DNA of 64,000 nucleotides, taken from positions 1,178,001 to 1,242,000 of the forward strand of contig OY725498.1 of assembly GCA_963281255.1 (NCBI GenBank), in the 5' to 3' direction. Origin of the DNA: Aphrocallistes beatrix (taxonomy: Eukaryota; Porifera; Hexactinellida; Sceptrulophora; Aphrocallistidae). The notes under the pieces are model-generated. The model was not told where the DNA came from. It was given only the letters and a program-made list of their open reading frames with translations, and searched no databases. A program made the position numbers and the translations under genes. This document shows positions 11,379-62,885 of the stretch, one piece after another (within the stretch, counting starts at the first letter, position 1; every line of letters begins with the position of its first letter).

Positions 11379-12188
11379 ATGGCTTCAGATCAACAACCTT
11401 CGGACCCCTCCCCTTCTCCCCAACCCGCATTCTCTCTCGACTCACTCCCTCGATGGGCTGAGAGCTACTTAGAGTTCCAGGTTCTCTTCAAGTTCCCTCA
11501 TCTCCAGAAACACTGGGAGCTCGCGATAGACAGACTGGATGAGGAGGATAAGAAGGAGTTGGACCAACTCGCGGCAGAGGTCGCGAATGAGACTTCTGGT
11601 TTTGACGCCGATACTCGTGAATTGATTGGAACTAAACTCCACCACAAGATAACTCTGCACTCGGGAGATATCACTGACCTGGCGGTGGATGCGATCGTGA
11701 ATGCCAGCAACGCGATGTTGTCCACTGGCGCAGGTGTGAACGGTGCCATCCACTCCAAGGCAGGGCCTGAGCTGCTGGATGAGTGCCAGGAGATCGGTGT
11801 CTGTGACGTAGGAGAAGCTGTGCTGACTAAGGGCTACAAGCTGCCTGCGAGGAATGTCATCCACACAGTAGGGCCTCATGGGGCAGAGCTGGGCAGGGAG
11901 GAGTCTCTTGCTGAGTGTTACAAGTCGTGTCTCCGTATCGCGAAAAAGTCCAAGCTACGCACGATCGCGTTCTGCTGCATTTCAACTGGCATCTCTAACT
12001 ACCCCTGTGTGGAGGCCGCGAACACGGCGGTCAATGCCGTGAGGAATTGGCTGTTGGAGTTGGAGGGAAACCGGAACGCAGTGGACAGGATAATATTCGT
12101 CGTCAGGAAGGCAGATGACCATGAATGCTACGCGAAACTCCTTTCATCTTACTTCCCAGTGAGAACTGGACAATGTCCTCTCGACTGA
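11379..12188 (+). CDS. MacroD-type ADP-ribosyl hydrolase
   Basis: An intronless 269-residue protein. MacroD-family enzymes remove mono-ADP-ribose from acidic protein residues and hydrolyse O-acetyl-ADP-ribose. The macrodomain covers about residues 85-262: GDITDLAVDAIVNASN (adenine and ribose binding), GAGVNGAIH (phosphate-binding loop 1), YKLPARNVIHTVGP and ISTGISNYP (loop 2). In human MacroD1/2 loop 1 reads GGGGVDG and its Asp is implicated in catalysis; here it is Asn, so activity may be weak or altered, leaving ADP-ribose reading possible. The N-terminal 80 residues are Ser/Pro-rich then acidic helical and are unassigned. It cannot be placed as MACROD1 or MACROD2. Confidence 0.9.
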   Translation: MASDQQPSDPSPSPQPAFSLDSLPRWAESYLEFQVLFKFPHLQKHWELAIDRLDEEDKKELDQLAAEVANETSGFDADTRELIGTKLHHKITLHSGDITDLAVDAIVNASNAMLSTGAGVNGAIHSKAGPELLDECQEIGVCDVGEAVLTKGYKLPARNVIHTVGPHGAELGREESLAECYKSCLRIAKKSKLRTIAFCCISTGISNYPCVEAANTAVNAVRNWLLELEGNRNAVDRIIFVVRKADDHECYAKLLSSYFPVRTGQCPLD

Positions 12189-13606: not shown

Positions 13607-16600
13607 ATGTCTGGAACTCCTCGCCCAAATCGAGTGGCAAAGTCGAATAGCATTCCAAGGAGGGTCCCCGTAGGCACTGGTGCCGCTCCCCAGACGTCTC
13701 TTGTCAAGCACCAGTCCTTCATTGGCAGTCCAAAGTCCGTCCGCAAGCCGCTACAGCTGGATAAAGGCTTGTCACGACGCGACTCAAAGATCCCCGCGGG
13801 GACGGACGACCCTGGCCCTCAAGAGCACTCTCTGCTCCGGTACATGGACGCGGACCTGTTCCGCCGAATAACCGGACAAACCAACCTCAAACTCATCACT
13901 CGCCTCGACCTGTCCTGCCCCCCCAACAACCCTAACAGCAGGAAGTTCCCCTACATCGACCACACGGACGCACTCACTAACCTCGTGGAGCTCAATCTGT
14001 GCGGCAACGCTCTCTCTCGCTGCGACCGACTGGGCAAACTCACTCAACTACAGAAGTTGTACATATCCAGCAACAAGCTGGAATCCCTAGACGGACTCTG
14101 GCCTCTGTTCAACCTCACCATCCTGGACGTGTCCTGCAACCAGATACAGAAGATCCCCAACTACCTCCCCAAGAAACTGACAGCCCTGAGAGAGCTGTAC
14201 CTCGACGGGAATAAGCTGATCTCTCTTCCTGACGTCATCAAACTCCGCTCCCTCACCGGCCTGGTGCACATGAGCATAGCAGAGAACCCCATCTCCCAGC
14301 TCCCGCACTGCAGGGGCATGGTGGTGTACGGGATCCCTACCCTCGAGCTGCTGGACGGAGACCCCGTCTCGGAGGAGGAGAAGGCGGAGGCGGGGGGCAT
14401 GTACGCTCGCGAGACGCTAGAGCTCCACGAGGCAGAGCTGCTGCAGCTGAGGGAACGCGTGTCCGGGCTGGAGCAAGATGTGGAGGAGGCGCTGAGGGGA
14501 AGGGAGCGACTGGAGAGGAACGAGACGCAGTCGCGGCAGGAACTGGTCGTGCGGACTCAGGAGAACGAGAGGCTGGACCAGGAGCTGGCCGCCCAGAGAC
14601 GGCTGGTGGAGCAGAAGACCGGAGAGCTGAACAAGGCGCTGGAGGGGCGGTACCAGCTGGAGAATGAACTGGCCCTCTACAAGCTCGACTACAAAGTGGA
14701 CGACTCCCGCTACACGGACCTGTTCCTGCCGACCTTCAATCCCGACTCGGAGAGTTCGGACATAGAAGAGATCCCCTACCTCGGACAAGCACGCTTCAAG
14801 CCTAACCAGACGGTGCACCGCACCACGCATCGAGACATGTCGCAACCAGCTCCGTACCAGGTGATGCCAGGTGTGCAGTATTCCGGCGAGGGGAGCGTTC
14901 ACACCCCGAACCCCTCCGACCCTGCCGTCCTGGCTCGGCAGGTGTACCGTAAAGAACAGGAAATACAGACGTCCGACCGGAGACTGGAAGACCTGCGTGT
15001 GAACTTGTCCCGCTCCAACCAGAACATCCAGACGTGCGAAGACGGACAGGGGGGAAGTCCGCTCAGCGACGAGGAGAGTGAGAGACTGAGAGCCCGCCTG
15101 TCCGCTGTGAAGGAGGAGCTGCGGGAGCTGAAGCGGCGCCAGGAGGAGCAGCACGACCTGTCTCAGATAATCGGCGCGTCCGACGAGGATACCGCCTCCC
15201 TGATCCGAGATTCGGAGGTGTTCGAGAGCGCAGACGCAGAGGACGTGAGCCACATCGCTGAGCTGATAGCAGAGAAGGAGGTGGCGACGCGTGAGATGGC
15301 ACAGCGGATAAGTGGCGGGGAACAGGTGGAGGTTATGAAGCTGGAGTCCTCCACCCTGACAGAGGAGCTGAGGAGGGAGAGGGGCCAGCAGGACAAGCTG
15401 GTGGCTGACAAGGCGCAGCTGGTAACCCTCCTGAACGAGGCACTGAACATACAGGGCGTGTCTGCCCCCGTGCACACCCCCGACACCGGCGAGCTGGAGG
15501 ACATGCGGGAGAGGGAAGCTCAGAGGGAGCAGGAGATGCAGGCCTTGCAGGAGGACATGGAGCGACTGATAGGAGAGAGGGACGGACTCTGGAGGAGGGC
15601 GCACAGGCAGACGGCAGAGGTCGGCGTGTCGGCAAGGTGTCACCTGATAGACCAGAGCACGAACACGCCGCACCCCCGTCCTAAGCTGAATGTATCGCTT
15701 GGCAGCAGTGTCAGCATTCCCTCAGGAGAGCAGGCGTGGGTGGACCGACTGACACAGCTGGGGCAGGACCTAGCGGAGAAGGAGCTAGTTAACCAGGTGC
15801 TCCAGGATGCCATCGATAGAATAAACCTCGAGAAAGACCGAGCCCTACAGGAGAGAGACCAGGCCAGGGAGGGGAAGGCGAGGTATGCAGCCGCGCTGCA
15901 GGACGCACAAGATCAAATCGATGAGCTGAAGCGGATGCTAGCCGAGGCGGGAGACGCGCTAGAGGGGCTGGAGCGTGTGGAGCGGGAGAGGGCCACGCTG
16001 GAGGAGCGCATGGGGCTAGAGGAGCAGGACCGCCACCAGGTGGAGGGAGAGAACAAGTGGCTCACGGACCAGGCCAACCAGATGAATCAGCGACTAGCGC
16101 AGTCAGAGGAGGTGAGGAGAGGTGTCAACAACCGTGCGCAAGAACTAGAGGAGGCACTGAGGGGAAAGGAATCAGAGATTCAAGAGCTGAGGGACTACAT
16201 CGCTCAGTTGGAGGATGCCAATGTCAAAAGTCCCCAGCACACCCAGCACACACAGACTCCAGCTCAGCCTAACTTTCCTCAGATGCTGGACCAGCTACAG
16301 ACCCTGATAGACGTCATCCCGGAAAACGGAGAACCGGAAGAAATCGCCACAGTGATACAGGAACTGCCTCAAACGCCTCCCGCCCAATTTCCTGCGGAGA
16401 GGATGGTCGGGGAGCTCGAGGACAAGCTGGTCGGACTGCTGGACAACGTGGGGGAGGAGCTGACACAGCTGCGGGACCAACTCGTGGCGGCGGAAGCGGA
16501 AAATGCCGACCTGAGAGAGCGCATGAACCCCACCCTGGTCAACCGGACCACTGAGACAGGCCCGGACCCTCGCCTCGAACGCTTGGCGCACGAACTGGAC

Positions 16601-19600
16601 AGCACACAGCGAGATTTAGACAACGCCACGCAGGAGATAGCGACGCTCCAGCGCTACAGAGGTGTGGACGTCTCCACTCAGGTCCGCCCCCGACTCAACA
16701 ACCAGCTCTCCCAGGCTAACCTCATGGACGCAGAGAACAGTGAGCTGCGTAGGCAGCTGGACCGTGCGGAGGGGGACAACGAAAACCTGCTGAAACAGCT
16801 GGAGCGAGCAGAGCGAGATGTGAGAACCTGCGAAGCCCATATCCAGACCTTGGCAGAGGATGTGCGAAACCTGGAAGAGGAGAACGCCCGGTTGGCACAA
16901 GCACTGCGTACCACAGTGGGGGTGCAGACAAGCGAGCAAGGGGAACAGCCGCCCTACGCCTACAACCAGCTGAGCGCTCTCGGCAGCGACGTGGCCAGGC
17001 TGCAGGGGATGATGGACAGGTACGAGAACGCAGATCCTCGCGACGGCTCTTCCGTGCTGACAGAGTCCATCGACCTGAATGAATTCGACCGGAGACCCCC
17101 GCACAGGAACGTGAGTCTGCAGGCCGACCTGTACGAGACGGAGAGCAGAGGGATGCAGACGGGGGGCACTGCCATGCACACGCAGACCTTCCCTCTCAAA
17201 GAGAGTCTGGGCACACAGACACATCCGCACACTCAGGAGAAAGAGTATCTGTTCCAATCCCCGCTCGATTCTCCTCTCTCTGTGAGTGAGAACTCAGTCT
17301 TTCCTAGCCATCGTGTGCGACCGCCGAACAGAACTGAGATACGCATTCCTGAAAGGGACAGGGGGGGCATACACGTGAAGAGTAAGTCGACACTCACTCG
17401 CAAACCCGGCGGTACGGGCAGGAGGAGAGAGGTGAGGGATATCTTCATCGACGAGGAGGTTATTTCTAGCGAGCCGGAGGTGTCTGTAGAGGAAGCGCCT
17501 CCTCTCCCCCCTCCTACTGATAGGACCACACGGGTGCACTATAGGACGACCCGCGGTGCTCAGACTGAGAAACCGAAAACTCACAAGAAATTCCAGGCTC
17601 TTTCCGACACTGAGTTGCACGATAAGATTTACATCTCCAAAAAGAAACGGAAGCATCGCGCAAATCGGACGAAGCATCCCCAGCAAACCCCAAGACACGC
17701 CTCCACTCAGAAAACCTTCATTGTCTTTTCGGAATCTGAGAGTGATACAGAGTCCGCAGCCTCTGCCCTGGAGTCGGGGGGAGATGCGGACTACATCTAC
17801 GTGCATGGGAAGCACAGGAGGCACAGACACCGGGACACCCAGGCAGGGAACGGCGGCTCTGATTACCACCGCATCCACGTGAGGAAGAGCGACCGGAGGC
17901 CAGCGGCTAAGCACCACTACACCACGGGGGAGCACGAGTACTTCTGTAATGTACCGCAGCATGCCGGCATGGAAGAGGAGATCGACAGACTGGAGGCTCT
18001 GCTGGACATCCCCAATCGCAGGAACAGGAGCACGCACGTGGACCTCACTGTACGCCACAGCGTGCTGGACCGCCTGGCCGATATCGAGCGGCTGCTGAAG
18101 GACAAGGTGGACCGGTTGGGCGACAAGCAGGAAGAGCAGGAGAGACTGAATCACCAGCTGTCTCGGGAGCAGCAGCACCTGTCTCGCACGGCGGCGGAGC
18201 TGTCCCGCGCAGGAAACGAGCTGCAGCAGATCAACGTGCAGCTGAGAGGGAGGAGTCAGCGCACGGATGACATCACAGGGCAGACCTCACACGGAGGCAT
18301 GACACCTCAACTTGACACGTTACATCGACGCATCGAGGGACTGACTGGGATCCTACACGAGGCAGAGACGCGAGGGAATGAGGAGGTCGCAGACCTGGTG
18401 GCCAGGAAGAACCGGCTACAGAGAGAGATTACTCAGCTCGGGGATGAGCTAGCCCTCGCGAAACGGAGCCTGCAAGAAGTGAACGAGCAGAAGAGGATTG
18501 CTCAGAGCGACTACTTTAGGTGCACCGAGGAGAAAGTAGATCTGGAAGATGAAATCAAGAATCTAACTTTGAGTCGAGTGAAGGAGGAAGGGAAACTGAG
18601 ACAACTGAGGGCGTTGACGCAAGAACTGAGGTCGTTACAATCAGCACCAGACTACTCGGATATCGCAGCACTTGAAGCTAAGCGAAGTGATCTGCAGTCT
18701 CAGATAAGGCAGTTACAACATGACGTGAGTAACTTCCCGTCTCAAGACGAGACGATGGAAAGGTTAAGGTACAGCCAGAATGAATGCGAGAAGTTGAAAG
18801 GTTTCGTGAAACGGTATAAGGAGCGAATCCGCGATTTAGATCATCAGTTGCGGAGGCATGGGGACCTGGAGAACAGCGAGCTCAGAGCTCAGCTAGGACG
18901 CAGACAGGACAACAGACAGCATCACTCCAAACACACACTCAACATTGACCAGCTGCTCCACGACCTCCAGTCTCAACTCGCCAACCTTCAGGGCAACATT
19001 TCCACGGAACTTTACAAAGATGATTTTAACCTTGCCTCCAGCCAGCCGCCTCCTCCCATGCACGATATGCTGCCTCCGGAAAACGCAGAAGTGCTGCCAG
19101 ACATGTTCTCCATGCGCGTCAATCGGCATCAGGCGACTCTTGATGAGATAAACAGGGAGCACGAATCCCTGGTCCAGATCCTACAGGTGAGCATGCAAGA
19201 GGGAGAGAAGAATGTGCTAGCAGCTCAACAGGAGACGATGCACGGGGTGGTGGACTTGAAGCAACAAATCGAACAGTTACAGGCGGTTCTGAATCAGCAC
19301 CAGATGGAGCCTCCGCCCGATAGCGCCTACCAGATGGAACTGGATATGAAGAGGCAGAGTGAACTGTTGTGCCAGGTAGATAAGAAGGTGGACCAAATAT
19401 CCAACCGCTATTTGACTAAACCGAGGCACACCCTCTCTCCAATCCCCAGAACCAATCCTTACCTGCACCCTCACTCTCTCAACAACTCGCAATTTGACAC
19501 CTGTCCTCTCCCCTACAGCTTCGACCCTCCTACGACCTACGACCCTCCCTCTCGAGATATACCCTTCCACCAATCCGACACTTCCTATTTCATGCAGCCT

Positions 19601-19948
19601 ACTGACCAGTCTACGAACAGTCTCAAGAAATCGTATGACTCCACTTTCGACAGGAACTCGCCTCCTTCCCCGCTCGCGCCGCCCGATAGCATCCTGTTTG
19701 AAGACCCTCCTGACCTGTCCCCCCCGTCTGACAGACGTATGCCTCGTGCCCCCGAGAGGAGGCACTCTCCTTACACCCTCCCTAGGACCAACAGGGACAT
19801 GAATGGTTCGATCTACCCGACTGAGCCGAAATCTCTGTCTACCCATTCCACTGCTAGCCTCCTCAGGTTACAGGCGCCGGATGAACACAAGATAAAGCTA
19901 CTCGAGCATAAGCGTGCTCAGGAAATGCACTCCCATCCGCATCACTAG
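13607..19948 (+). CDS. CNTRL: Centriolin (LRR plus coiled-coil centrosomal protein)
   Basis: A centrosome/midbody protein of 2,113 residues in one exon; human centriolin is about 2,300. After a basic N-terminus, residues about 90-245 form leucine-rich repeats (LVELNLCGNALSRCDRLGKL, LQKLYISSNKLESLDGL, LRELYLDGNKLISLPDV) with a cap ending LELLDGDPVSEEEKAEA. Coiled coil follows for most of the protein. The block starting ELNKALEGRYQLENELALYK and running through EEIPYLGQARFKPNQ matches human centriolin (KTIELTRACQKQYELEQELA region), which makes the call firm. A less helical middle section (about 1,100-1,400) carries repeated QT motifs and a basic RKHR-rich stretch; the C-terminus is Pro/Ser-rich. 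The gene is much richer in G+C than its flanks. Lack of introns over 6.3 kb is unusual. Confidence 0.92.
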   Translation: MSGTPRPNRVAKSNSIPRRVPVGTGAAPQTSLVKHQSFIGSPKSVRKPLQLDKGLSRRDSKIPAGTDDPGPQEHSLLRYMDADLFRRITGQTNLKLITRLDLSCPPNNPNSRKFPYIDHTDALTNLVELNLCGNALSRCDRLGKLTQLQKLYISSNKLESLDGLWPLFNLTILDVSCNQIQKIPNYLPKKLTALRELYLDGNKLISLPDVIKLRSLTGLVHMSIAENPISQLPHCRGMVVYGIPTLELLDGDPVSEEEKAEAGGMYARETLELHEAELLQLRERVSGLEQDVEEALRGRERLERNETQSRQELVVRTQENERLDQELAAQRRLVEQKTGELNKALEGRYQLENELALYKLDYKVDDSRYTDLFLPTFNPDSESSDIEEIPYLGQARFKPNQTVHRTTHRDMSQPAPYQVMPGVQYSGEGSVHTPNPSDPAVLARQVYRKEQEIQTSDRRLEDLRVNLSRSNQNIQTCEDGQGGSPLSDEESERLRARLSAVKEELRELKRRQEEQHDLSQIIGASDEDTASLIRDSEVFESADAEDVSHIAELIAEKEVATREMAQRISGGEQVEVMKLESSTLTEELRRERGQQDKLVADKAQLVTLLNEALNIQGVSAPVHTPDTGELEDMREREAQREQEMQALQEDMERLIGERDGLWRRAHRQTAEVGVSARCHLIDQSTNTPHPRPKLNVSLGSSVSIPSGEQAWVDRLTQLGQDLAEKELVNQVLQDAIDRINLEKDRALQERDQAREGKARYAAALQDAQDQIDELKRMLAEAGDALEGLERVERERATLEERMGLEEQDRHQVEGENKWLTDQANQMNQRLAQSEEVRRGVNNRAQELEEALRGKESEIQELRDYIAQLEDANVKSPQHTQHTQTPAQPNFPQMLDQLQTLIDVIPENGEPEEIATVIQELPQTPPAQFPAERMVGELEDKLVGLLDNVGEELTQLRDQLVAAEAENADLRERMNPTLVNRTTETGPDPRLERLAHELDSTQRDLDNATQEIATLQRYRGVDVSTQVRPRLNNQLSQANLMDAENSELRRQLDRAEGDNENLLKQLERAERDVRTCEAHIQTLAEDVRNLEEENARLAQALRTTVGVQTSEQGEQPPYAYNQLSALGSDVARLQGMMDRYENADPRDGSSVLTESIDLNEFDRRPPHRNVSLQADLYETESRGMQTGGTAMHTQTFPLKESLGTQTHPHTQEKEYLFQSPLDSPLSVSENSVFPSHRVRPPNRTEIRIPERDRGGIHVKSKSTLTRKPGGTGRRREVRDIFIDEEVISSEPEVSVEEAPPLPPPTDRTTRVHYRTTRGAQTEKPKTHKKFQALSDTELHDKIYISKKKRKHRANRTKHPQQTPRHASTQKTFIVFSESESDTESAASALESGGDADYIYVHGKHRRHRHRDTQAGNGGSDYHRIHVRKSDRRPAAKHHYTTGEHEYFCNVPQHAGMEEEIDRLEALLDIPNRRNRSTHVDLTVRHSVLDRLADIERLLKDKVDRLGDKQEEQERLNHQLSREQQHLSRTAAELSRAGNELQQINVQLRGRSQRTDDITGQTSHGGMTPQLDTLHRRIEGLTGILHEAETRGNEEVADLVARKNRLQREITQLGDELALAKRSLQEVNEQKRIAQSDYFRCTEEKVDLEDEIKNLTLSRVKEEGKLRQLRALTQELRSLQSAPDYSDIAALEAKRSDLQSQIRQLQHDVSNFPSQDETMERLRYSQNECEKLKGFVKRYKERIRDLDHQLRRHGDLENSELRAQLGRRQDNRQHHSKHTLNIDQLLHDLQSQLANLQGNISTELYKDDFNLASSQPPPPMHDMLPPENAEVLPDMFSMRVNRHQATLDEINREHESLVQILQVSMQEGEKNVLAAQQETMHGVVDLKQQIEQLQAVLNQHQMEPPPDSAYQMELDMKRQSELLCQVDKKVDQISNRYLTKPRHTLSPIPRTNPYLHPHSLNNSQFDTCPLPYSFDPPTTYDPPSRDIPFHQSDTSYFMQPTDQSTNSLKKSYDSTFDRNSPPSPLAPPDSILFEDPPDLSPPSDRRMPRAPERRHSPYTLPRTNRDMNGSIYPTEPKSLSTHSTASLLRLQAPDEHKIKLLEHKRAQEMHSHPHH

Positions 19949-20827
19949 CAATATTTCCCTGCCAACACATACTGCTACTGTATTATCCTATATTTCCCTC
20001 CATTAGCATACTTAATATTATTTTGTGATAATTACTGTGCAATGTGTACTTGTTTTGTGTTTCTGTTGGTTATTCAAGCTGTCTCTGTCATTCACAATCC
20101 ATGCCACTTTTTTGCTTGATGGAATTGGCTACATATTCTCACTACATACACACACGTAGCTGTTGTGTGTAGCGTACAACACAAGGTCAATACCACATTG
20201 AACCCTCCAAAGCCAATACAACAACATATTTAAGCTTGCTAATGTGTTCTAACATCTGTAGAATACGATTTCCACCAAGCACAAAATCTTCTAAGAACTT
20301 ATTAGCACTAGCTAGGATGGCGTCAGTCTAGTCTGCTTCTACATGTTCGATGTAACATAATCATATACATACGTGTGCTATAATTTAGGTGCTTTACCCT
20401 CTTTCTTTCAGGTTATCCCAACTTATGAAGTCCTGGCATGTGAGTTGGTTGGGAATTTCCTAACATTTTGTTTATTGACCAAATTCGATTGTTGCATTTA
20501 AATAATCATTTGATGAAGTAGCTACGTGATCCACATAAGGCCTGACCGTTAAGCATAATCAATTAAATCATCCCACAAACAAAATTATGGATCCTTAAGT
20601 ATAAACGAACTGCGAAGCAGTTTGAGGATGCATCGATGATGAAACTATTAACACCATCTTTCGGCTGATAAATCCATGATTGATGCAATATATTCTGAGA
20701 TGCGAATCAATGCTACTTCACGGAGTTTATGATGAGGCTGTGATATATGTTTGTGGATCTCAGTATGTAAAATGGTTTTAAACGGGCCATAATGTAATCA
20801 GCAATTTGCATAGTGGACTGACTAAAT

Positions 20828-27410: not shown

Positions 27411-28442
27411 ATGAATCGCTGTATCTCAATTTCTTTAATATTCGCTCTATGCATTAACCTCATCTCAATTGTTATATTCATTTTGCTTGACACCGAGAGT
27501 GTGAACAAGGCACTTTTCATTTCCTATCCCGATCCCTCCAATTGTATGCAAAAATCGCGATTTAATATCAGTAAACCAGGTGACGTCATGGTGTTCTTCC
27601 ACATTCAGAAGACTGGAGGGAGTAGTTTCGAGTCAGACCTTGTTACGAACATTAAGGTTCACAACTGCTCAGGTGAGAAGATTAAGTTAAACAAAAGCCA
27701 ACGAATTGTGTCCAGAAACCACAAATGCTTTAAACGGAATTCCACTGAGCTTTGGTTGTTAACCCGCCGGACAGTTGGCTGGCCCTGCGGGGCACATCCA
27801 GACTATATAACACTCAAATTATGTGCGCCATTGCATCTATCTTCGTCATTTGAAAAGAGAGAATGGAACCTGTTCTTCATTACTTTATTGCGAAATCCTG
27901 TAACTCGGTTTATCAGTGAGTATTTGCACGTAACCCGAGGCGCTAACTGGCCTGTTTATAAGAAGAGTTGTTCTCACTCAGCCAGACATTCTTGGCTCAA
28001 TCTGGAAACACTCCCGTATCCATGCGAATTCATGGACAGGGATAGGGTGAACCTCACGCTAGACGAATTCCTCAGTTGTCCCAAGAATCCTGCTATAAAC
28101 CGCATGTCACGAATGCTGTCAGAAAACTTTAACTTCGGATGCACGCGTAACTCAAGTATTAAATCGAGAGAAAAGAAAAAATTGATGTTAGAGAGTGCTA
28201 AACTCAATCTTGAGAAAATGGATTACTTTGGTATTCTTGATTATTTTGTTGAGTCAAAGGAATTATTTGAAGCCACCTTCTCTTTCCAATATTCTAAAAC
28301 TTCACAGTATATTCCCTCGCATGGCGACTCTTATGAGCTCTCGAGTAAGCAGAGAAACGACATAGAAGTGGCTAACTATCTTGATGTACAATTGTATGAA
28401 TGGGCAGTGAAGTTATTTAAATGCAGACTGAGAGCACTCTGA
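27411..28442 (+). CDS. HS6ST: Heparan-sulfate 6-O-sulfotransferase
   Basis: A Golgi type II membrane enzyme that moves sulfate from PAPS to the 6-O position of glucosamine in heparan sulfate. It is a single exon of 343 residues. The transmembrane anchor is at residues 5-26 (ISISLIFALCINLISIVIFIL). The 5'-phosphosulfate loop is FFHIQKTGGSSF (about 62-73); the 3'-phosphate-binding segment is LLRNPVTRFISEYLHV. Family landmarks include WPCGAHPDY, RGANWP, a conserved Asn-rich region (NPAINRMSRML) and YFGILDYF, then LDVQLYEWAVKLF. It is shorter than vertebrate HS6STs at both ends. Several N-glycosylation sequons are visible. The paralogue number cannot be assigned. The acceptor-like TATCATATTCAG lies 18 bp before the ATG. 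Confidence 0.93.
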   Translation: MNRCISISLIFALCINLISIVIFILLDTESVNKALFISYPDPSNCMQKSRFNISKPGDVMVFFHIQKTGGSSFESDLVTNIKVHNCSGEKIKLNKSQRIVSRNHKCFKRNSTELWLLTRRTVGWPCGAHPDYITLKLCAPLHLSSSFEKREWNLFFITLLRNPVTRFISEYLHVTRGANWPVYKKSCSHSARHSWLNLETLPYPCEFMDRDRVNLTLDEFLSCPKNPAINRMSRMLSENFNFGCTRNSSIKSREKKKLMLESAKLNLEKMDYFGILDYFVESKELFEATFSFQYSKTSQYIPSHGDSYELSSKQRNDIEVANYLDVQLYEWAVKLFKCRLRAL

Positions 28443-41172: not shown

Positions 41173-41648
41173 GGGGTCACATTGTTAAATTGTAAGGGAG
41201 ATAACATCTCTAAATACGTCTGTCCTACTTTTAGAATCTACATCGCACGATAAATCACCAAATTTATCAATTTATAAAATTTTGATGCGTAATGATGATG
41301 TCATAACAGAGTGATGATAGTTGCATCATATGTGAAGTATATTAGAATACAGATTCTATCTAAAATTTCAGCATTCTATCTCCTATAATGGAGTTATGCT
41401 CGAATAACTCTGTTGCTTAACTTTTTAAAATGTGACAATGACGTCATAATTCCATGATGAGTCGACATTTTGCTCTGAGCTCAGAACTTACTGGAGCCAT
41501 AACCAAAAGACTCCCACATGCCAAAAATTAGCTTTCTATGACCGGCAGTTTCTTCAATCAATTCGTTACAGAGATATCTTATATATTAAGACTCTAGGAT
41601 TTTTGTTTGTTTGTTTGTCCGAATTGAAGAATTGGCAAGTCGTCGAGA

Positions 41649-42807
41649 CACGTGTAGCTACACATGTAGCTACACGTGTAGCTACACATGTGGCTACACG
41701 TGTAGCTACACATGTAGCTACACATGTAGCTACACATGTAGCTACACATGTAGCTACACGTGTAGCTACACATGTAGCTACACATGTAGCTACACATGTA
41801 GCTACACATGTAGCTACACATGTAGCTACACATGTAGCTACACGTGTAGCTACACATGTAGCTACACATGTAGCTACACATGTAGCTACACATGTAGCTA
41901 CACATGTAGCTACACATGTAGCTACACATGTGGCTACACGTGTAGCTACACATGTAGCTACACGTGTAGCTACACATGTAGCTACACATGTAGCTACACG
42001 TGTAGCTACACATGTAGCTACACATGTAGCTACACATGTAGCTACACATGTAGCTACACATGTAGCTACACGTGTAGCTACACATGTAGCTACACATGTA
42101 GCTACACATGTAGCTACACGTGTAGCTACACATGTAGCTACACATGTAGCTACACATGTAGCTACACGTGTAGCTACACATGTAGCTACACATGTAGCTA
42201 CACATGTAGCTACACATGTAGCTACACGTGTAGCTACACATGTAGCTACACATGTAGCTACACATGTAGCTACACATGTAGCTACACATGTAGCTACACA
42301 TGTAGCTACACGTGTAGCTACACATGTAGCTACACATGTAGCTACACATGTAGCTACACATGTAGCTACACATGTAGCTACACATGTAGCTACACATGTA
42401 GCTACACATGTAGCTACACGTGTAGCTACACATGTAGCTACACATGTAGCTACACGTGTAGCTACACGTGTAGCTACACGTGTAGCTACACGTGTAGCTA
42501 CACATGTAGCTACACATGTAGCTACACATGTAGCTACACGTGTAGCTACACATGTAGCTACACATGTAGCTACACATGTAGCTACACATGTAGCTACACG
42601 TGTAGCTACACATGTAGCTACACATGTAGCTACACATGTAGCTACACATGTAGCTACACATGTAGCTACACATGTAGCTACACGTGTAGCTACACATGTA
42701 GCTACACATGTAGCTACACATGTAGCTACACATGTAGCTACACATGTAGCTACACGTGTAGCTACACGTGTAGCTACACATGTAGCTACACATGTAGCTA
42801 CACGTGT
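41649..42807. repeat. 12-bp tandem array (GTAGCTACACAT/GT), about 96 units
   Basis: About 1,159 bp of head-to-tail 12-mers with no frame-breaking indel. Roughly a quarter of the units (about 24) carry CACGTG at the junction, the rest CACATG, and two carry TGGCTACA. CACGTG makes the unit junction a palindrome and CACATG is its CpG-decay product. Because 12 is a multiple of 3, two reading frames on each strand stay open throughout (repeats of VATH/VATR or CSYT), but codons are the trivial result of the repeat. Types of unit are not random: a block of one GT unit, four AT, one GT, six AT recurs near the start, middle and end. Confidence 0.97.
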
Positions 42808-44215: not shown

Positions 44216-46259
44216 ATGCATCGCAAGCAACCTTACAGCAACAAAAAGAAGAAGCAACAACTTCAACAGAAGCGAAATAAGAAACAATCAAGCAAAGAAC
44301 CACCAACTAATGGTGATGCCACTAATGGCATTCTCATTTTCACTCCAGAAACCCTTTCTGAAAACGACTTTACTTCAGATGATCCTTCAACTCCTTTGGA
44401 TGGAGAGAACGGCCAAACAAGCAATAATTTAGACACAGTTAGCTTAGACAATAATAAAATCACGACCAGTCACGCTCTAAACCTAACAGAGTTAGGTACC
44501 TCATTGCAATTTGCTTCTCTCCCCAAGTATTCTCTCACTAAATTTCACACACAGCCTGGCTCTCAACAGAACTATAATAACCGATTTCAGCTGCATTTTG
44601 TGAGGGAATCCGAGGAAGAGATCGAAGCGAGGAAAGAGTTCTCCTGTCTTCCGATCACTTTTATTCCTGAGATTGAGTTGGAGTTGTCCGCTGCGGACGT
44701 TTATCCTCCCGGAACAGTTCTAGATATCCCGAAGCGGCCTCCATGGCGTGACAGCGATACGCGCGTGACGATAGAGCGAGCTGAGGAGAGAATGTTTGAG
44801 TCTTACCTGCAGGAGATCTCCTCACAATTTCCGGTGGATCAGCTCTCCTACTTCGAACACAACCTGGAGACATGGCGCCAGTTCTGGAGAGTATTGGAGA
44901 TATCACAGGTATACAAGTTAGACTCTCCTTATATTCAACCCGATACTTTATATATATAATGTAGACCAATAAAAACTGTTATAATTGCCCATCTCTTCCT
45001 GCTGGTAGGTGATAATGCTGATAACAGATGTGAGGCATCCAGTGCTCCACTTCTCCCCCTCCCTCTACTCGCACGTGGTGAAAGAGCGAGGAAAATCCCT
45101 GGTACTCGTTCTCAACAAGTCTGACCTCGTGCCAGCCAGCGTAGCCATCGCTTGGAAGCACTACTTCACGCGAAACTTCCCAGGCACCCATGTCATCTGT
45201 TTCTCCGCCTACCCTGACGACCAGGCCTCGTTGGAGCCGCAGAAGAAGATCAAATTGAAATTCCCTCGACATAGGAAGCGGCTCATCTCCGAGGCGGTGG
45301 GTGTGGAGGAGCTGTTCCAGTCTGTGAGGGAAATATACGCGGGAAAGAAAGACCTCGTCGACCTCAAGAAACCTGAGCCTGATGGGTATGAAGAAGTTCT
45401 TTCGAGCGATTCCTCAGATGAGGAGCATTCCTCTCTAATCGAACCCAGGAGAACCTCCAAACCGCACCTCCATCCCTCCGGAGATAACGTGCTCACGATT
45501 GGCATGGTGGGACACCCTAACGTCGGCAAGAGCTCTATCATTAACGGACTTATGGGGCGTAAGGTGGTGAGCGCTTCTAAGACACCTGGACACACCAAAC
45601 ACTTCCAAACGATCTTCATCACTCCCACAGTCTGTCTATGCGACTGTCCCGGGCTCGTGTTCCCCTCCCTCGTACCCAAACAGGTGCAGGTGCTCTCAGG
45701 CATGTACCCCCTCTCGCAGTTGCGGGAGCCGTACACCACTGTTGGCTACCTGATGGCGAGATACCCCACTCTCATACAGATGCTCAGGCTGGAGCACCCC
45801 AGGGAACCCCCCTGCAAGAAGGGGGCAGCTAAGCCGGAAGTGAAGTGGTCCCCTTTCGACCTGTGTGAAGCGTGGGCGCTGAAGAGAGGATTCAACACAG
45901 CCAAAGCAGCTCGTCCAGACCTGTACCGAGCGGCCAACCACCTCCTGCGACTAGCGACGGACGGGAGAATCTGCCTCTACTTCAGGCCGCCCGGCTACAC
46001 CGCAGAGAAGGCGGAGTGGGACAGCCATCCGGAGACACTGTCTCTCTTAGAGGTTCAGCACAAGTCCCTACAAGAGCTGGAGAGGAAACGGGTCCCAGTC
46101 GAGAAGAGACCCATAATCGACGACATCGCGATGGCAGAGATGATGATAGCTAGCAGTAAGGCTCAGAACCAGCGGGGTAAGAAGAAGCCAGACAGACAGA
46201 GAGGAGAGAATAAATTCGCCATTCTGATGGATGATGTCGAAGACGATGATTCTTTATAG
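44216..46259 (+). CDS. GNL1: Circularly permuted GTPase GNL1
   Basis: A YlqF/YawG-family GTPase; relatives (LSG1, GNL2, GNL3) act in ribosome maturation. Exons 44216-44908 and 45009-46259 join in phase 0 (100-bp intron) to give 647 residues (human 607). The basic N-terminus MHRKQPYSNKKKKQQLQQ and the segments PPGTVLDIPKRPPW and LSYFEHNLETWRQFWRVLE are GNL1-specific. GTPase motifs come in permuted order: G4 VLNKSDLVP, then G1 GHPNVGKSSI, then G3 DCPGLVFPS. C-terminal YRAANHLLRLATDGRICLYF and an acidic tail follow. An acidic Ser-rich insert (SSDSSDEEHSS) lies before G1, as in vertebrates. A MITE occupies most of the spacer to NPLOC4. Confidence 0.95.
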
Positions 46260-50260: not shown

Positions 50261-51466
50261 ATGGAACTTACCGATAAGATCTGCTACACTTACGAAGATG
50301 GAGTGGAGACGTTTAGAGAGCTTTTATCCAAAGAAGTGGAACACACTCCCCGAGCTCTTTGTGCCATCAAATCTCTGATTTACTTCCTCAAAGGCAACAA
50401 AGATCCCACCATATCTCAGGTTTGTATCTCAGACTCAATACTTGTAATAGCTCTATGGAATGAAAACTAGATTTATTAGATCCTAGAATCACTGTTAGAG
50501 ATGCAGAAGCGTATGGAGGCAGTGACGAATAGTATCAATGTGACATCTGGAAGCGAGATATTCCGTAGGTTTATCACACTCGCCAGCATGGACGCGTTGG
50601 ATGCAGAGAAGTCTCGAGCCAAGATGATCCACAGAGGAATGGTGTTCTACACTAGATGCTCCGAGGCACTGAACACCATCTCAAAACTCGGTGAGTTGAG
50701 TAGACTCAATTTCTTCAGAAACAGCTGTATTTAATGCATCAGTGTTAAAATCCTTGTTAACCGATTCAACCTGAACGCGTATTAAGAATCGCCTGCATTA
50801 TTGTAGGGATACCCTTCATCAGAGACGAGGTGAGGATTCTAACGCACGCCTATTCGCGAGTCGTGCTGAGTCTGCTCAGCGCAGCTACTCAGGCGCGCAA
50901 GAGAGTTCGAGTTGTGGTGACGCGAGCAGAAAGGGCCCCCGACAATGGCAGCTCCACTGACGCAGTAGGTCGAGGAGAAGAGATGGTTGAGAAGCTGAAA
51001 AGAATCGGAGTGCCGTGTGCTCTTATCCTGGACTCAGCAGTGGGATACATCATGGACAAGGTAGCTTCAAACTGCTCCTAGTTTAAAGTAACAGGATGGA
51101 TTATACTGGTTTGGTGTCTAGGTGGATATGGTGCTGGTGGGTGCAGAGGGAGTGGTGGAGAATGGAGGGATCATCAACCAGGTGGGGTCCTACCAGATGG
51201 CCGTGATGGCCAAAGCGTGCAACAAACCGTTCTATGCAGCGGTGGAGAGTTACAAGTTCATTCGGATCTACCCGCTGAAGCAGGATGACCTCAGTCACCT
51301 CAACCCTCCGGGTGCGGGGAGTTTGGGGAAGAACGACTCGACTCTCCCTCTCTGTCACCCATGGGTCGACTACACCCCTCCCTCCTACATCTCGCTCCTC
51401 TTCACAGACCTGGGCATACTCACACCCTCAGCTGTGTCTGATGAGCTCATTAAACTATATTCTTGA
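50261..51466 (+). CDS. EIF2B1: Translation initiation factor eIF2B subunit alpha
   Basis: The regulatory alpha subunit of the eIF2 guanine-nucleotide exchange factor, which mediates inhibition by phosphorylated eIF2 in the integrated stress response. Exons 50261-50419, 50480-50690, 50807-51060 and 51122-51466 (phases 0, 1, 0; introns of 60, 116 and 61 bp) give 322 residues (human 305). The N-terminal helical domain contains [16 protein letters not shown]. The Rossmann-like domain has [47 protein letters not shown] and [15 protein letters not shown], and ends [20 protein letters not shown]. Typical C-terminal [14 protein letters not shown] is intact. The next gene begins 267 bp downstream. Confidence 0.96.
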
Positions 51467-51733: not shown

Positions 51734-53272
51734 ATGTCTGCAATACAAGGTTGGGTGAACAAACTGTTCCATAGATCCCCTAAGGAGCATCGGTTGCTCT
51801 TCTTAGGTCTAGACGCGAGTGGACGTACCAGCACTCTCTACAAACTGATTCTAGGAGAGACCGTAACCACTATCCCCACGATAGGATTCAACGTCGAGAC
51901 CTACGTGTACAATAAGCACTCCATGACCATATGGGATGTAGGGGGGTGTGATAAGATTAGACCTCTCTGGAGGCACTATTTCCAGAACACACAAGCGATT
52001 GTCTTCTTCGTGGACAGCACTGACAGGGAGCGAATCGAAGAGTCGGAGTGGAGTCTTGGGCTACTTCTCACTGAGGATGAGTTGAGAGATATTCCTCTGT
52101 TAGTTTTCGCGAACAAACAAGATCTTCCTGACGCCATGACTGCAGAGGAGGTTACTGAAAAGCTGAAGTTGGGGCAGATAAGAGATCATCCTTGGTACAT
52201 CCAACCATCCTCTGCTATCAGAGGAGACGGGCTGTTTGAGGGGTTGGACTGGCTGCTGAGTGTGTTTGAGAGTTCCAAAGGTGAGACCAGGTCTGAGTCC
52301 AAACCTGCTGCGAAGGCGAGTAAAGGTGGAGGAGACCCGAGCAAAGACCTGGATGCCATCCTGGAGAGATGGCTGGAGATAGAGGATGAACCGGATGAGG
52401 AGTTCATAACCGCTCTGGAGAACTTCACACTTGATAATTGGGACCATCGCACCCATTTGAGGCTAGCGTGGGTCTACCTAACTCGGCACGGGAGGAGGGA
52501 AGGAATGAAAAAGATTTTCGCTAGCATCAAGAGTTTCATCGACAACAGTCCTAGAGCTCGTAAAACCACTTTCCACGAGACGATGACCTATTTCTGGACC
52601 CACATGGTTCACTATGCAATCGAAGCTACCAAGAACCCTAGCAACGACTTCAAAGGGTTCCTCCTGATGAACCCACAGCTTGCTAACGGCGGACTATTCC
52701 TAGACTACTTCACGAAGGATCTGATGCTAATGAAGATGGAGAGTCGTCAGAAAGTTGTTCTCCCAGATATCAAGCCACTGCCTAGCATTCTATCATCCCT
52801 GACCACACCTAGCAATCCTGTTGTTTTGAGCAAGAAGAAAGTTCTCTCTGATTTGGAGTTTTTACAGAAGTTTGAAGATAAAACTCTCGAACAGTGGAGC
52901 TTTGAAGATGAGTTGAGAGCAACTTATGTGAGCTTGTACACCAAAGGCAGGCGAAACGGAACAAAGATGGTTCATTCAGGAATGGAGAAATTCCAGGGCA
53001 GCGGTTACAACCTAACCATAACCTACTTCTGGATACAAATGGTCTGGTATTACATGTGCACGGAAGGACTGGACCAGAATGCTGGGTTGGAGGGCCCTGC
53101 ACCCTCTCCTATGGAGTTCTCTACCTTCATAGAGAAATACGCGCTCCTACTCGACCGTAAACTCCCTTTGAAATACTATTCCGAAAAAGTGCTCTACCGT
53201 GACCCCAAATCTGCCACAGAGTTCACGTTGCCAGATAAGAAGCAGCTGCCTTCTATTATACCGAAGAAATAG
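51734..53272 (+). CDS. ARF-like GTPase fused to two WxHxxHL-type domains
   Basis: A single-exon, 512-residue protein from the ATG at 51734 (the codons just before it are TTG). Residues 1 to about 180 are an ARF/ARL GTPase: P-loop [10 protein letters not shown] (25-34), [11 protein letters not shown] (switch I), [17 protein letters not shown] (67 on), NKQD (127) and SAIRGDG. Two key residues differ from ARF: P-loop Lys is Arg31, and the GTP-hydrolysis Gln is Cys72. No Gly follows the Met, so N-myristoylation is not expected from this start. Residues about 225-370 and 375-512 are two copies of one helical domain sharing GRRxG, TYFWxxMV and LPDxKxLPSI. Copy 1 keeps [15 protein letters not shown] and FHETMTYFW, resembling a bacterial family of unknown function; copy 2 has lost these His. 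Confidence 0.85.
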
Positions 53273-57210: not shown

Positions 57211-57341
57211 GCTCCTGTGGGGGGCTTTTTTTTAAACTGTGTGGCTTCCCGACCTTTTCACTGTCTATCTATTATTGGTTTTGAGAGTATCAATTGGGGG
57301 TTTTATAGTGAACTGTGTTAGATTTATTTATATTTAAAGAG

Positions 57342-60300
57342 ATGGCTGAAGATAAACATGTTAGTTTTGATCCGCAAACGAAATCTGAGGATGCGGATTT
57401 GCGAAAAGATCCTGCGCAGGATGAGTTAGAAGATATGGACACCTCCAGTCCTGAACACGATTCCTCTTGCAGAAACATGCTACAAGAATCTTCTCCTCCT
57501 CCAATGCTAGAGAGGTACAGAGCTTGCATGTTGCTAGCGGGAGTGGGGGATGCCCTCGGGTATAATATGGGGTATTGGGAGTTCTGTCCATCAGGTCCCA
57601 AGATTATGAACGTTATTGCTAAGAAGTATGAAGGAATAATTAATCTCAAACCTAAACAGAAGTCAAAGTTCATGCTGTCTGACGACACCATCATGCACAT
57701 CGCAACTGCTGAGGCATTACTCAGTGAGTGGAGAAGTGATTTCGAGTTGTTTCTTCGAATAGCACAGTGTTATGTAGAATGTATGCAAGACATGTCGGGG
57801 AGAGCTCCTGGAGGAGCCTGTTTGGGTGGGACGTGGGAGATAGCTAATAATCTGCGGAATAACAGATTTGATGAAGAAAATCCTCCCTACATCATCCAAT
57901 ACGGGATATCGAAGGGAGGATGTGGGGCAGCAATGAGGAGTGTGCCGATAGGACTTCTCTATTGTAAAGAAGACCAGATGGATCAGTTGATGAAGGTATG
58001 ATGTTAGATATTATTTATTTTTGCAAACATTTGCATGAAATGTACCGATTCAAAAAGAAATGAGCCTTGATTCTATTGTCCCCCAGCTACTAAGTAGGAA
58101 TGCTTTTTTAGCAATAGGTTAAAGCAAAAAGATTGAAATTTTTTGCATTAAATGTGAATGTTCATCGTTTTTCAGAAATATTTCATACATTAGGATGACA
58201 ATTGTTAGCAATTTTAGATGGATACTTTACAGAACCCCTATCAAGTAATTCTAATATTGAGAAATCCGTGTATCATTATAAACTTGAATATATTTGTTAA
58301 ATAAAAAATTATCGCAGTCTCGAACATTCTGTGGAAAATGCAAAAAGAGACGACCCAGGCAGGATTCGAACCTGCAATCTCCTGATCCGTAGTCAGACGC
58401 GTTATCCGTTGCGCCACTGGGCCATATCTATAAATATCTCTATGCATCATATAAAATTTTAAAATTTGTGAGTTTTTGTGCATTTTAAAAAAACTAGCAG
58501 CATACGTCGATTCGCACATATTCCTTGGATATTCTATACAGCTTATGTTAAATATTCATGATCTCTTAGCATTTTGCTGTATATTTTCTCCTTTTGCTTT
58601 AAACTATCCAACATGGATTTTGAGCCTATGCATGCCCCTTATCTTCACTTTAAGAATTTGGAACCACATGGTTGCTACTGCTAATTCATCCAGCTTCCTG
58701 GTAGGTATCGATTGAGTCAGGCCGAATGACTCATCACCAGAGCACAGGCTTCCTCGGCTCTCTAGCCACAGCTCTGCTCATACATCTAGCAGTAAGAGGC
58801 GTTCCCCCACTCAGCTGGGGGAGAGTAGTCCTGGAACAGTCCCAACTAGCGCTTAAATATTGCAAGGAAAACGATCGCTATCATAACAGTTATGGCGACA
58901 TATCTCAGGACTGGGGATACTTTCAGGAGAAATGGACAGAATACTTAATGAGGAGGAACATCTTTAAGGAAGATGGACCGATAGACTTTAAGAATGACTA
59001 TTGGAAAGATGGCGATCCACAGACGCCTTCGTACGAGAACCATGATGACTTCGTCCGCGAGGTAATTTTGTGTGCCTCCCATACAATTGTATTATAGCGA
59101 AGCCTCTACACTAATTGTTTGGATGGCCACTATTGAATGAGTAATGATGATTCGGCCGTGGTCACTCCTGACCAGAGTTTAAAAGATTTTTTTGTGAAGC
59201 ATCGTGAAGCGACCGAATCCAAAGGACTCATGATTTATAAGATGTGTGAAAAAAATCCTCACAAACGGGATGGAAGTATGCTTTTACATTATTAGGATGA
59301 TGACGCAATAATTGTGTCATTATCCAATGTTGGAAGCACACTCCCATCCTGTCTGTGTGGGAGGGCTTTACTTTGTGTCTATGCAGTGTGTCCTTTATTC
59401 ACTAACCCTTTACTTTGAACAATGCTTGCACAATATGATCAAAGCTTTGTCGTTGAGTTCTAAGCACTGCGTACTTGCCTATGTACAATGCGTGAAATAC
59501 TGAGAATAAATTCATGTTTAATTGATTCGTTGCTTGGATATTTGACATCCAAATGATTCAACGACTACTCGTCTAGGTATCATACTCAGGTTTTGGGGGC
59601 AGCAGTGGACACGACGCTCCCATGCTCGCATACGACGCAGTCCTCTTCGCTCTGAATGCACGAGAGAAGGAAGGTAGGACTAAAGCCTGGGAGATGTTAT
59701 GTACGTATGGTATGTTCCACTGTGGTGACTCTGACAGCACTGGGATAATCTCGGCTGCTATTTGGGGTGCAATGCATGGATTTGAAGCCTATGAATCTAA
59801 CTACGAAGATCTCGAATACAAATACAGACTACTGTCATTGGGAGAACAGTTATATTACAAAAGTGAAACATTAGTTGGGAATGTTGGAAACTTTGAATCG
59901 AAAAATACTGTTGAAGATATTGGAAAGGATTCGGAGTTATTGTCAGCTGAGAATAATCCACCAAATATTTTACCAGATCCTCCCTCGGAAGAGGAGTTAA
60001 AGGCTACCAAAAATAATGTAGAAGCAGGTTCCATTGTACCACTAGAGGGAAATGATGAGTTAAATGAGACTAAGGAACGTTTACTGTCAATGGAAAGAGA
60101 TTCACAAATAGGACCATCTGAAAATACCCCATCAGGCCCTTTAGAAAATCCTGCATCAGAAGAAGGATTAAAGGCTCTTGCAGATTCTACTGAACCTCGA
60201 AAAGAAATTGGTCAGTCGGATGGAACTGAGAGACTTTTGGCGTCAGTGGAGAGTGATTCTTCACAAATTGGACCATCTGAAAATAACCCATCAGGCCCTT

Positions 60301-61625: not shown

Positions 61626-62885
61626 ATGGATTTGTTATTATGCAAGAATAAGAGATGTGCTGTAGTACTGCTATTTCTTTTAGCCTCTTCATTGCTCTTT
61701 ATTTTCTCTATTGACCATTATGTGAAGTCAAGCGGAGAATTCGGGGCTGAGTTTGGGGCTACAGAGCAATCAGTAGGCAACTCATTTGATAATTTCATAA
61801 ACAAGAGCTGTATTAATCCGAGTTTGGGTAAGAAAGAAAAAACTTCTATCGCGCTACTCAAAGTCCATAAAACCGGCAGTACAACTCTCGCTAGCATTCT
61901 GTACAGGTATGGGGTACATAGAGGGTTAAGCTTTGTAATGCCACAAAAGCCCAAACTCCACCAGTTCTTTCCACAGACCATTGACCAAGCTAGACAGCTG
62001 TTCTATCCTCCCTGTAAAGAAAAGTACGACATACTGAACATCCACTCGAGATACAACGGTAGAGAAGTGTTAACTAAGTATATGCACCGAGATACATTCG
62101 TGATTGCAACGCTAAGGCATCCAGCGGAACAAATGATTTCTTGGTTCAGGTACTATGGTTACTCGAAGCAGCTTGAAATGGTGAAAGTGTCATTTTCTGA
62201 TTACTTAGACAATCCTAAGCAATACAGTCGCAATTTTAGTGGTGGAAATCCAATGGATTTGATGTGGAATGGCATGTCTAATGACATCGGACTTTCTGAA
62301 TTCAACATCCCCAAGGGTCTCACTATGTCACAACTGAAAAATGATCCTGAGCACATGAAAAGTGTAGAAAGATTTCTAGAATGGGCTGAGAGTGAGATCG
62401 ACTTTTTCCTCATCTCTGAAGTATTTGATGAGTCTTTGATATTATTGAAAGATATGTTGAACTGGAAACTGGAAGATTTGATGTATTTCAGTCAGAATGC
62501 TGCTGCTAATAAGATCAATGACGTTGATGATGATCTCAGAGATAAATTGATTCAGTTTTCCTACATAGACTATCTCCTCTATCAGAAAATGTTAAGCAAA
62601 TTCTTGACATTGAAAAGCGAGAAAGAAAAATATATAGAAGAAGAAGTTTTTGAGCTTCAGAAGTTGAACAAGGAATTTTCAGATTATTGTTTGGAAGAAA
62701 TAAAAATTAATCCCAAACTTTACGGAAGTGTTCCAATTCTCGGGAATAAACTGAGGATCGAGCGTGAAAATAACAAGTGTTGTTACGATGCAGCTATGGA
62801 TGAAGCTTCCTATGTGATGTTGCTGAAACAATATATGGCCCAATCCTGTGCAGTAACTGCGAGGGAGACTAGTCCTGGTTCATAG
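61626..62885 (+). CDS. Galactose-3-O-sulfotransferase family protein
   Basis: A Golgi type II membrane sulfotransferase of 419 residues in one exon; the family adds sulfate from PAPS to the 3-O position of galactose on glycolipids or glycoproteins. The membrane anchor is at about 11-28 (CAVVLLFLLASSLLFIFS). The 5'-phosphosulfate-binding loop is LLKVHKTGSTTLASIL; the 3'-phosphate site is ATLRHPAEQMISWFRYYG. Further family features are NIHSRYN, FFLISEVFDESLILLKDMLNW and the late SFIDYL-like helix (FSYIDYLLYQKMLSKF). The acceptor sugar and paralogue cannot be told. AATAAA at 63038 follows 153 bp after the stop. It is unrelated in detail to the HS6ST at 27 kb. Confidence 0.88.
   Translation: MDLLLCKNKRCAVVLLFLLASSLLFIFSIDHYVKSSGEFGAEFGATEQSVGNSFDNFINKSCINPSLGKKEKTSIALLKVHKTGSTTLASILYRYGVHRGLSFVMPQKPKLHQFFPQTIDQARQLFYPPCKEKYDILNIHSRYNGREVLTKYMHRDTFVIATLRHPAEQMISWFRYYGYSKQLEMVKVSFSDYLDNPKQYSRNFSGGNPMDLMWNGMSNDIGLSEFNIPKGLTMSQLKNDPEHMKSVERFLEWAESEIDFFLISEVFDESLILLKDMLNWKLEDLMYFSQNAAANKINDVDDDLRDKLIQFSYIDYLLYQKMLSKFLTLKSEKEKYIEEEVFELQKLNKEFSDYCLEEIKINPKLYGSVPILGNKLRIERENNKCCYDAAMDEASYVMLLKQYMAQSCAVTARETSPGS

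What the first reader, a model, noticed from the sequence alone, without database searches (positions are those of the whole stretch)
51734..53272. ARF-like GTPase with two altered catalytic positions fused to a duplicated bacterial-type domain
Seen: one ORF joins an ARF fold to two tandem copies of a helical domain. The ARF part has GLDASGRTS (Arg for the P-loop Lys) and WDVGGCD (Cys for the Gln needed for hydrolysis). Copy 1 keeps WDHRTHL and FHETMTYFW, like a bacterial family of unknown function that I recall as WTHxAHL...HETxTxFW; copy 2 keeps the scaffold but not those His. Known: in ARF1 loss of the Gln gives slow hydrolysis and P-loop Lys changes impair nucleotide binding. Inference: a switch-impaired ARF scaffold carrying one possibly active and one decoy domain, perhaps after bacterial gene capture.
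Basis: partly seen in the sequence, partly recalled or inferred. Interest (0 to 1): 0.78.

Follow-up and report, generated by a model that had tools for sequence, protein, structure and literature searches.

The report
Arl17-type GTPase with duplicated bacterial-type domain
A single gene joins a membrane-traffic switch protein to two copies of a little-known domain also found in bacteria; this combination was already described in scattered eukaryotes as Arl17, and the copy here is notable for its altered switch residues and its probable animal host.

Summary
ORF 51734-53272 (+, 512 aa) is an ARF-family GTPase followed by two diverged copies of one domain. ARF1-type motifs are kept except Arg31 (ARF1 Lys30) and Cys72 (ARF1 Gln71). 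The recalled bacterial family is real: a profile of 14 actinobacterial domains scores copy 1 at 71 bits and copy 2 at 39; the best shuffle scored 9.4. HxxH is in 14 of 14 of these, kept in copy 1, lost in copy 2.

'Bacterial gene capture' in this lineage is not supported. Vargova et al. [quoted passage not shown] This gene is very probably an Arl17. Possibly new are the host (probably an animal, by GC probably not a bdelloid) and the double loss of catalytic residues. I could not compare it with published Arl17 sequences, build a tree or name the species. Likely mechanism (inferred): a GTPase with impaired cycling that positions a ligand- or metal-binding domain.

The parts
51734..53272 (+). 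Whole ORF: Arl17-type protein, 512 aa, no intron in the coding region
51770..52261 (+). ARF-family GTPase domain (residues 13-176), closest to ARF1/ARF3 among solved structures
   Evidence: Pfam PF00025 E 9.9e-63; PDB rows led by ARF1-type chains
51734..51769 (+). N-terminal segment [12 protein letters not shown]; Ser at position 2, so no Gly2 for N-myristoylation; only moderately amphipathic
   Evidence: sequence; hydrophobic moment of residues 2-13 is 0.44, equalled or exceeded by 77 of 501 12-mers of the protein, itself included
51824..51826 (+). Arg31 codon at the P-loop Lys position (ARF1 Lys30)
51947..51949 (+). Cys72 codon at the switch II Gln position (ARF1 Gln71)
52262..52396 (+). Linker (residues 177-221), Ser/Lys-rich then acidic, by eye
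   Evidence: sequence; lies between the boundaries given
52397..52783 (+). C-terminal domain copy 1 (residues 222-350), keeps H238xxH241 and H281-E282
   Evidence: bacterial-only HMM, 66.0 bits for this stretch; conservation
52856..53251 (+). C-terminal domain copy 2 (residues 375-506), conserved His and Glu lost (F, E, N, L)
   Evidence: bacterial-only HMM, 30.0 bits for this stretch; conservation

Best explanation
The gene is a new Arl17-type member of the ARF family: an Arf1-related GTPase with two tandem copies of an unnamed domain shared with Actinomycetota. Most likely mechanism (inferred): the GTPase part still folds as an ARF and binds guanine nucleotide weakly or cycles abnormally, because the P-loop Lys is Arg and the catalytic Gln is Cys. 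It then acts as a membrane- or partner-directed platform with poor or no intrinsic hydrolysis. Copy 1 carries the binding site of the family (HxxH plus His-Glu, possibly a metal or small-ligand site), and copy 2 is a scaffold or dimerising copy. Shown: architecture, duplication, residue changes, bacterial homology. Inferred: nucleotide behaviour, membrane role, ligand site, division of labour. Separate estimates: Arl17-type identity 0.9; mechanism as a whole 0.3; the number given is between the two.
For: ARF domain; tandem homologous copies; tblastn match of copy 1 alone to a Streptomyces plasmid protein, E 3e-4, 25.4% identity over 88% of the query in 7.3 Gb; members in sampled Actinomycetota genomes; bacterial-only HMM scores; HxxH in 14 of 14 bacterial domains, H at 281 in 11 of 14, E at 282 in 11 of 14. 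The published Arl17 description fits on GTPase parentage, domain position, copy number, nonidentity of copies, lack of a known-domain match and bacterial occurrence. Loss of the switch II Gln has precedents in ARL10, ARL13A/B, ARL15 and ARL16, discussed as atypical or pseudoGTPase behaviour (PMC12722892, passages).
Against: No published Arl17 sequence could be fetched, so orthology was not tested by a tree, and I cannot show that the domain here is the paper's domain. The His-Glu half of the proposed site is not invariant: 3 of 14 bacterial members lack the Glu and 3 of 14 lack the His (N in 2, Q in 1), and all 14 were recruited by profiles that held copy 1, which favours its motifs. The structure model of copy 1 is poor (mean pLDDT 56.6, 4 rows) and matched nothing at E <= 0.001, so the site is only a conservation pattern. 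The N-terminus is not strongly amphipathic and lacks Gly2, which weakens the membrane role. Arg at the P-loop Lys may be tolerated (recalled for some NTPases).
Confidence: 0.6

Rival explanations
1. Independent fusion: this lineage itself joined an Arf1 duplicate to a domain captured from bacteria, so that it resembles Arl17 by convergence.
For: No tree was possible to exclude it.
Against: The same GTPase-plus-tandem-domain order is already reported across protists, certain fungi and rotifers, so inheritance or transfer of a ready-made fusion is simpler. GC3 of the GTPase part (0.568) and of the C-terminal part (0.583) agree.
Confidence: 0.07
2. Ordinary ARF switch: Arg31 and Cys72 are tolerated, and the protein still cycles with a GEF and a GAP; the C-terminal domains are effector-like modules.
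For: Switch [18 protein letters not shown] and an SA-type G5 motif are retained and the rest of the domain is very ARF1-like.
Against: Both changed positions are highly conserved in canonical family members (recalled for the Lys; for the Gln the review ties its loss to atypical behaviour).
Confidence: 0.25
3. Contaminant, pseudogene or mis-assembly.
For: Among the holozoans sampled by the 2021 paper only a rotifer had Arl17.
Against: The 512-codon frame is intact; flanks are eukaryotic genes, including a GRK4/5/6-type kinase just downstream and an eIF2B-alpha-like gene just upstream (read by eye); GC3 0.575 lies within the range 0.405-0.714 of the 13 other window ORFs measured.
Confidence: 0.04

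Closest known systems
Arl17 (Vargova et al. 2021, PMC8358228; by name only the same as the human ARL17A/B genes, recalled)
   Same: Arf1-related GTPase, C-terminal tandem nonidentical copies of a domain without a described family, domain also in bacteria
   Different: Rotifers were the only holozoan holders reported; this genome is probably an animal and by GC probably not a bdelloid (bdelloid GC recalled). The paper calls Arl17 GTPase domains very divergent; this one is close to ARF1 apart from the changed residues. Whether Arg31/Cys72 are shared with published Arl17 proteins was not tested
ARL10, ARL13A/B, ARL15, ARL16 (ARF-like proteins lacking the switch II Gln)
   Same: Loss of the switch II Gln
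   Different: No such C-terminal domain in the passages that I read; here the P-loop Lys is changed as well
Unnamed actinobacterial HxxH...HETxT family, e.g. WP_143599277.1 of Streptomyces sp. S1D4-14
   Same: Whole domain aligns to copy 1 and, more weakly, copy 2; HxxH kept in copy 1
   Different: Where its annotation was read it is a separate small gene without a GTPase; the others are ORFs found by profile, not annotated. No family in the Pfam, NCBIfam or PHROGs scans made

Membership tests
ARF family (Pfam PF00025) | ARF GTPase domain with WDxGG and NKxD motifs | tested here: met
   E 9.9e-63, 211 bits against cut-off 22.3; motifs
ARF family, canonical switch | P-loop GxxxxGK[S/T] and switch II Gln | tested here: not met
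   Arg31 and Cys72
Arl17 | GTPase domain related to Arf1 | tested here: met
   In the best 60 of 401 solved-structure rows, ARF1/ARF3-type chains lead, ahead of ARF6, ARL1 and ARL5 (46 rows)
[quoted passage not shown]
   Two homologous copies of about 130 residues; architecture as described
Arl17 | The C-terminal domain is the same domain family as in published Arl17 proteins | tested here: inconclusive
   Fits the description (no known-domain match; bacterial relatives), but no published Arl17 sequence could be compared
Arl17 | Very divergent GTPase domain (a tendency named by the paper) | tested here: inconclusive
   Divergent at two key positions, but otherwise close to ARF1
Arl17 | Groups with Arl17 in a phylogeny | not testable with these tools
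   No eukaryote sequence collection is offered; the paper itself found no support for Arl17 monophyly
Actinobacterial HxxH...HETxT family | Invariant HxxH | tested here: met
   H238 and H241 in copy 1; 14 of 14 bacterial members. Copy 2 does not meet it
Actinobacterial HxxH...HETxT family | Significant score to a profile built without the window's sequences | tested here: met
   70.6 bits (copy 1) and 39.3 bits (copy 2); best shuffle 9.4
Class I/II pseudoGTPase | No nucleotide binding, or binding without hydrolysis | not testable with these tools
   Needs purified protein; classes as given

The most novel reading that the evidence does not exclude
An animal lineage other than rotifers has kept or separately acquired Arl17 and turned its GTPase into a pseudoGTPase platform that holds a bacterial-type HxxH/His-Glu (possibly metal-dependent) domain together with an inactivated second copy: a pseudo-switch tethering an enzyme-like module and its decoy.
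Probability: 0.2. Interest if true: 0.65.

Novelty: new member of a known kind. Interest (0 to 1): 0.35.

Why it matters
Arl17 has no known function and is missing from the common model eukaryotes. A further holder, probably in an animal, would widen its distribution and give another species in which to study it. The 14-member bacterial alignment and the contrast between copy 1 and copy 2 point to specific residues (H238, H241, H281, E282) as a likely functional site of a domain that has no name in the libraries searched. The Lys/Gln double change makes it a clear test of whether an Arl17 works as a switch at all.

Tried and rejected
Whole genome of the window: none held. Viral contigs: no relative for the whole protein (5 stretches matched a pattern, none confirmed) or for the bacterial subgroup (13 stretches, none confirmed). 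The one scan of genome contigs gave 2 Streptomyces relatives out of 225 matching stretches. Phages: no match. Plasmids: one real relative, the Streptomyces sp. S1D4-14 protein. The Limosilactobacillus and Bacteroides rows had E 3 and 5 and were dropped. The Rhizobium row (E 0.02) lies antisense to a cobalamin gene and was dropped as chance. A further plasmid search with another bacterial member found nothing. Bacterial phyla other than Actinomycetota were not sampled by profile, because no genome handle outside that phylum was obtained.

Family libraries: Pfam, NCBIfam, PADLOC and PHROGs name nothing for the C-terminal domain; the weak rows (HSM3_C 0.054, Phage_T7_Gp5_9 0.22, TPR_14 0.031 and the like) are below cut-off. 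PDB by profile: only E 1.1 and 1.3. Structure: copy 1 model pLDDT 56.6, full-length single-sequence model pLDDT 38.5; Foldseek gave 0 of 78 rows at E <= 0.001, so no fold is claimed.

E-values are inflated, because the profile held a near-identical Streptomyces row; the same holds for members already in profile A2. The profile searches were seeded with window sequence; removes the window's own rows but its members were recruited by profiles that held them. Bacterial neighbours, listed as ORFs for 11 loci and not scanned against any library, show no single partner by eye, so gene neighbourhood gives no function. Paper searches gave nothing on this Arl17 beyond PMC8358228.

Full report
Observation. 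The ORF is at 51734-53272 on the + strand: 512 codons without a stop, ATG to TAG. It is one frame from an ARF GTPase (Pfam PF00025, residues 13-176, E 9.9e-63) through a Ser/Lys-rich linker into two copies of one domain. The copies align with 41 of 144 positions identical; a Smith-Waterman score of 152 compares with a best of 57 in 2000 shuffles. With the P-loops aligned, the ATG lies within one residue of the ARF1 start (numbering offset of one). A splice-acceptor-like ttttcag ends 21 bases before the ATG, so an upstream untranslated exon is possible.

GTPase residues. Against ARF1-type sequences the P-loop reads GLDASGRTS, with Arg31 where ARF1 has Lys30, and switch II reads WDVGGCD, with Cys72 where ARF1 has Gln71. 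Switch I (TIPTIGFN), NKQD and an SA-type G5 motif are kept. Residue 2 is Ser, so the glycine needed for N-myristoylation of classical ARFs (recalled) is missing. The N-terminal helix is only moderately amphipathic: 77 of 501 12-mers of the protein score as high or higher. Loss of the switch II Gln is known for ARL10, ARL13A/B, ARL15 and ARL16 and is discussed as part of atypical or pseudoGTPase behaviour (PMC12722892, passages only).

The bacterial family is real. tblastn of copy 1 against 72,556 plasmid records gave one significant row, a hypothetical protein of a Streptomyces plasmid, E 3e-4 over 88% of the query (annotation). Profiles then found further members. A phylum draw around a Streptomyces genome gave 5 of 296 genomes, the centre genome included. 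A second draw gave 4 of 396, all four already seen. Order draws gave 1 of 5 (the centre itself), 2 of 30 (the centre and one new) and 9 of 148 (two already seen and seven new). So the domain is uncommon among the Actinomycetota sampled; other phyla were not sampled this way. An alignment of 14 bacterial domains (two of them near-identical Streptomyces rows) shows HxxH in 14 of 14. At the later motif, H is found in 11 of 14 (N in 2, Q in 1) and the following E in 11 of 14 (A in 3); a PD pair near the end has P in 13 of 14 and D in 13 of 14 (the P0001 positions printed there are one too high, and the numbers used here are those checked). A profile from these 14 alone scores copy 1 at 70.6 bits and copy 2 at 39.3 bits; 5000 shuffles of each were given, and the 3903 and 3173 that were reported reached at most 9.4 and 6.2 bits. 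Copy 1 keeps H238, H241, H281 and E282; copy 2 has F, E, N and L there.

What it is. Vargova et al. 2021 (PMC8358228; section 6 part 1 of 2, sections 9 and 13 whole, and passages elsewhere) define Arl17 as an ARF-family paralogue related to Arf1. [quoted passage not shown] Arl17 has a very patchy distribution and a tendency to very divergent GTPase domains. [quoted passage not shown] they note that support for Arl17 monophyly is lacking. The architectural features that I could test agree. One point fits less well: apart from the two changed positions and Ser2 this GTPase part is close to ARF1 rather than very divergent. I could not compare sequences directly: no eukaryote collection is offered, and no supplementary look-ups were allowed. 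Identity as Arl17-type is therefore very likely (0.9) but not proven by a tree. Human ARL17A/B share the name only (recalled).

Host. The neighbours point to an animal or close relative: a kinase just downstream matches GRK5, GRK6 and GRK4 at E 4e-158 to 2e-152, with papain-type protease, macro-domain, sulfotransferase and sugar-transporter genes elsewhere in the window and an eIF2B-alpha-like gene just upstream (read by eye). GC of 2-kb blocks is 0.355-0.500 outside 14001-20000, where it is 0.539-0.615; the mean of the 32 blocks is about 0.42. That is higher than I recall for bdelloid rotifers (about 0.3). GC3 of the gene, 0.575, is inside the range 0.405-0.714 of the 13 other ORFs measured, so nothing marks it as a recent arrival. 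The species is unknown, and 'animal' is an inference. A literature search for Arl17 with rotifer found only this paper. Two wider searches listed 15 of 1,023 and 7 of 7 papers; the other listed papers that hold 'Arl17' have titles on human subjects and were not opened. Only an open-licence library was searched.

Mechanism. Shown: architecture, duplication, residue changes, homology. Inferred: weak or abnormal nucleotide cycling; positioning of the C-terminal modules on a membrane or partner; a ligand or metal site in copy 1; a structural role for copy 2. The models were too poor to test a site, and the His-Glu half is missing or altered in 3 of 14 bacterial members. The bacterial members show no constant gene partner by eye: the Streptomyces one follows a MarR gene, and L013 and L017 lie beside a divergent ORF that I read by eye as an Lrp/AsnC-like regulator.

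Verdict. A sound observation of something already described in kind. The new parts are a probable further holozoan holder, the Arg/Cys pair in the GTPase, the bacterial-family conservation that separates copy 1 from copy 2, and the absence of the domain from the family libraries searched.

Noticed in passing
41648-42807: Satellite-like array of a 12-base unit (ACACATGTAGCT), 96.7 copies at 96% match; it produces four long, probably meaningless ORFs on both strands (VATCVATR.., CSYMCSYT.. type).
   Followed up: partly
13607-19948: An intronless 2113-aa ORF with N-terminal leucine-rich repeats, GC-rich (GC 0.58, GC3 0.71) against about 0.4 around it; the rest looks coiled-coil by eye, centrosomal-protein-like.
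   Followed up: partly
L013:1423-2421 and L017:1435-2417; L001:2543-3435: Some bacterial members of the domain lie beside a transcription regulator: MarR upstream in L001 (annotated), Lrp/AsnC-like and divergent in L013 and L017 (read by eye). A hint at ligand-linked regulation.
   Followed up: partly
27411-28442 and 61626-62885: Two separate sulfotransferase-like ORFs without introns in one window (the first by Pfam Sulfotransfer_2; the second by eye).
   Followed up: no
11379-12188 and 57315-58001: A macro-domain gene and an ADP-ribosylglycohydrolase-type gene in the same window, both of ADP-ribose-processing kinds.
   Followed up: no
51075-51125: The eIF2B-alpha-like gene upstream seems to carry an intron of only about 50 bases, as does the LSG1-like gene near 44960-45010 (by eye): a compact genome with short introns.
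   Followed up: no
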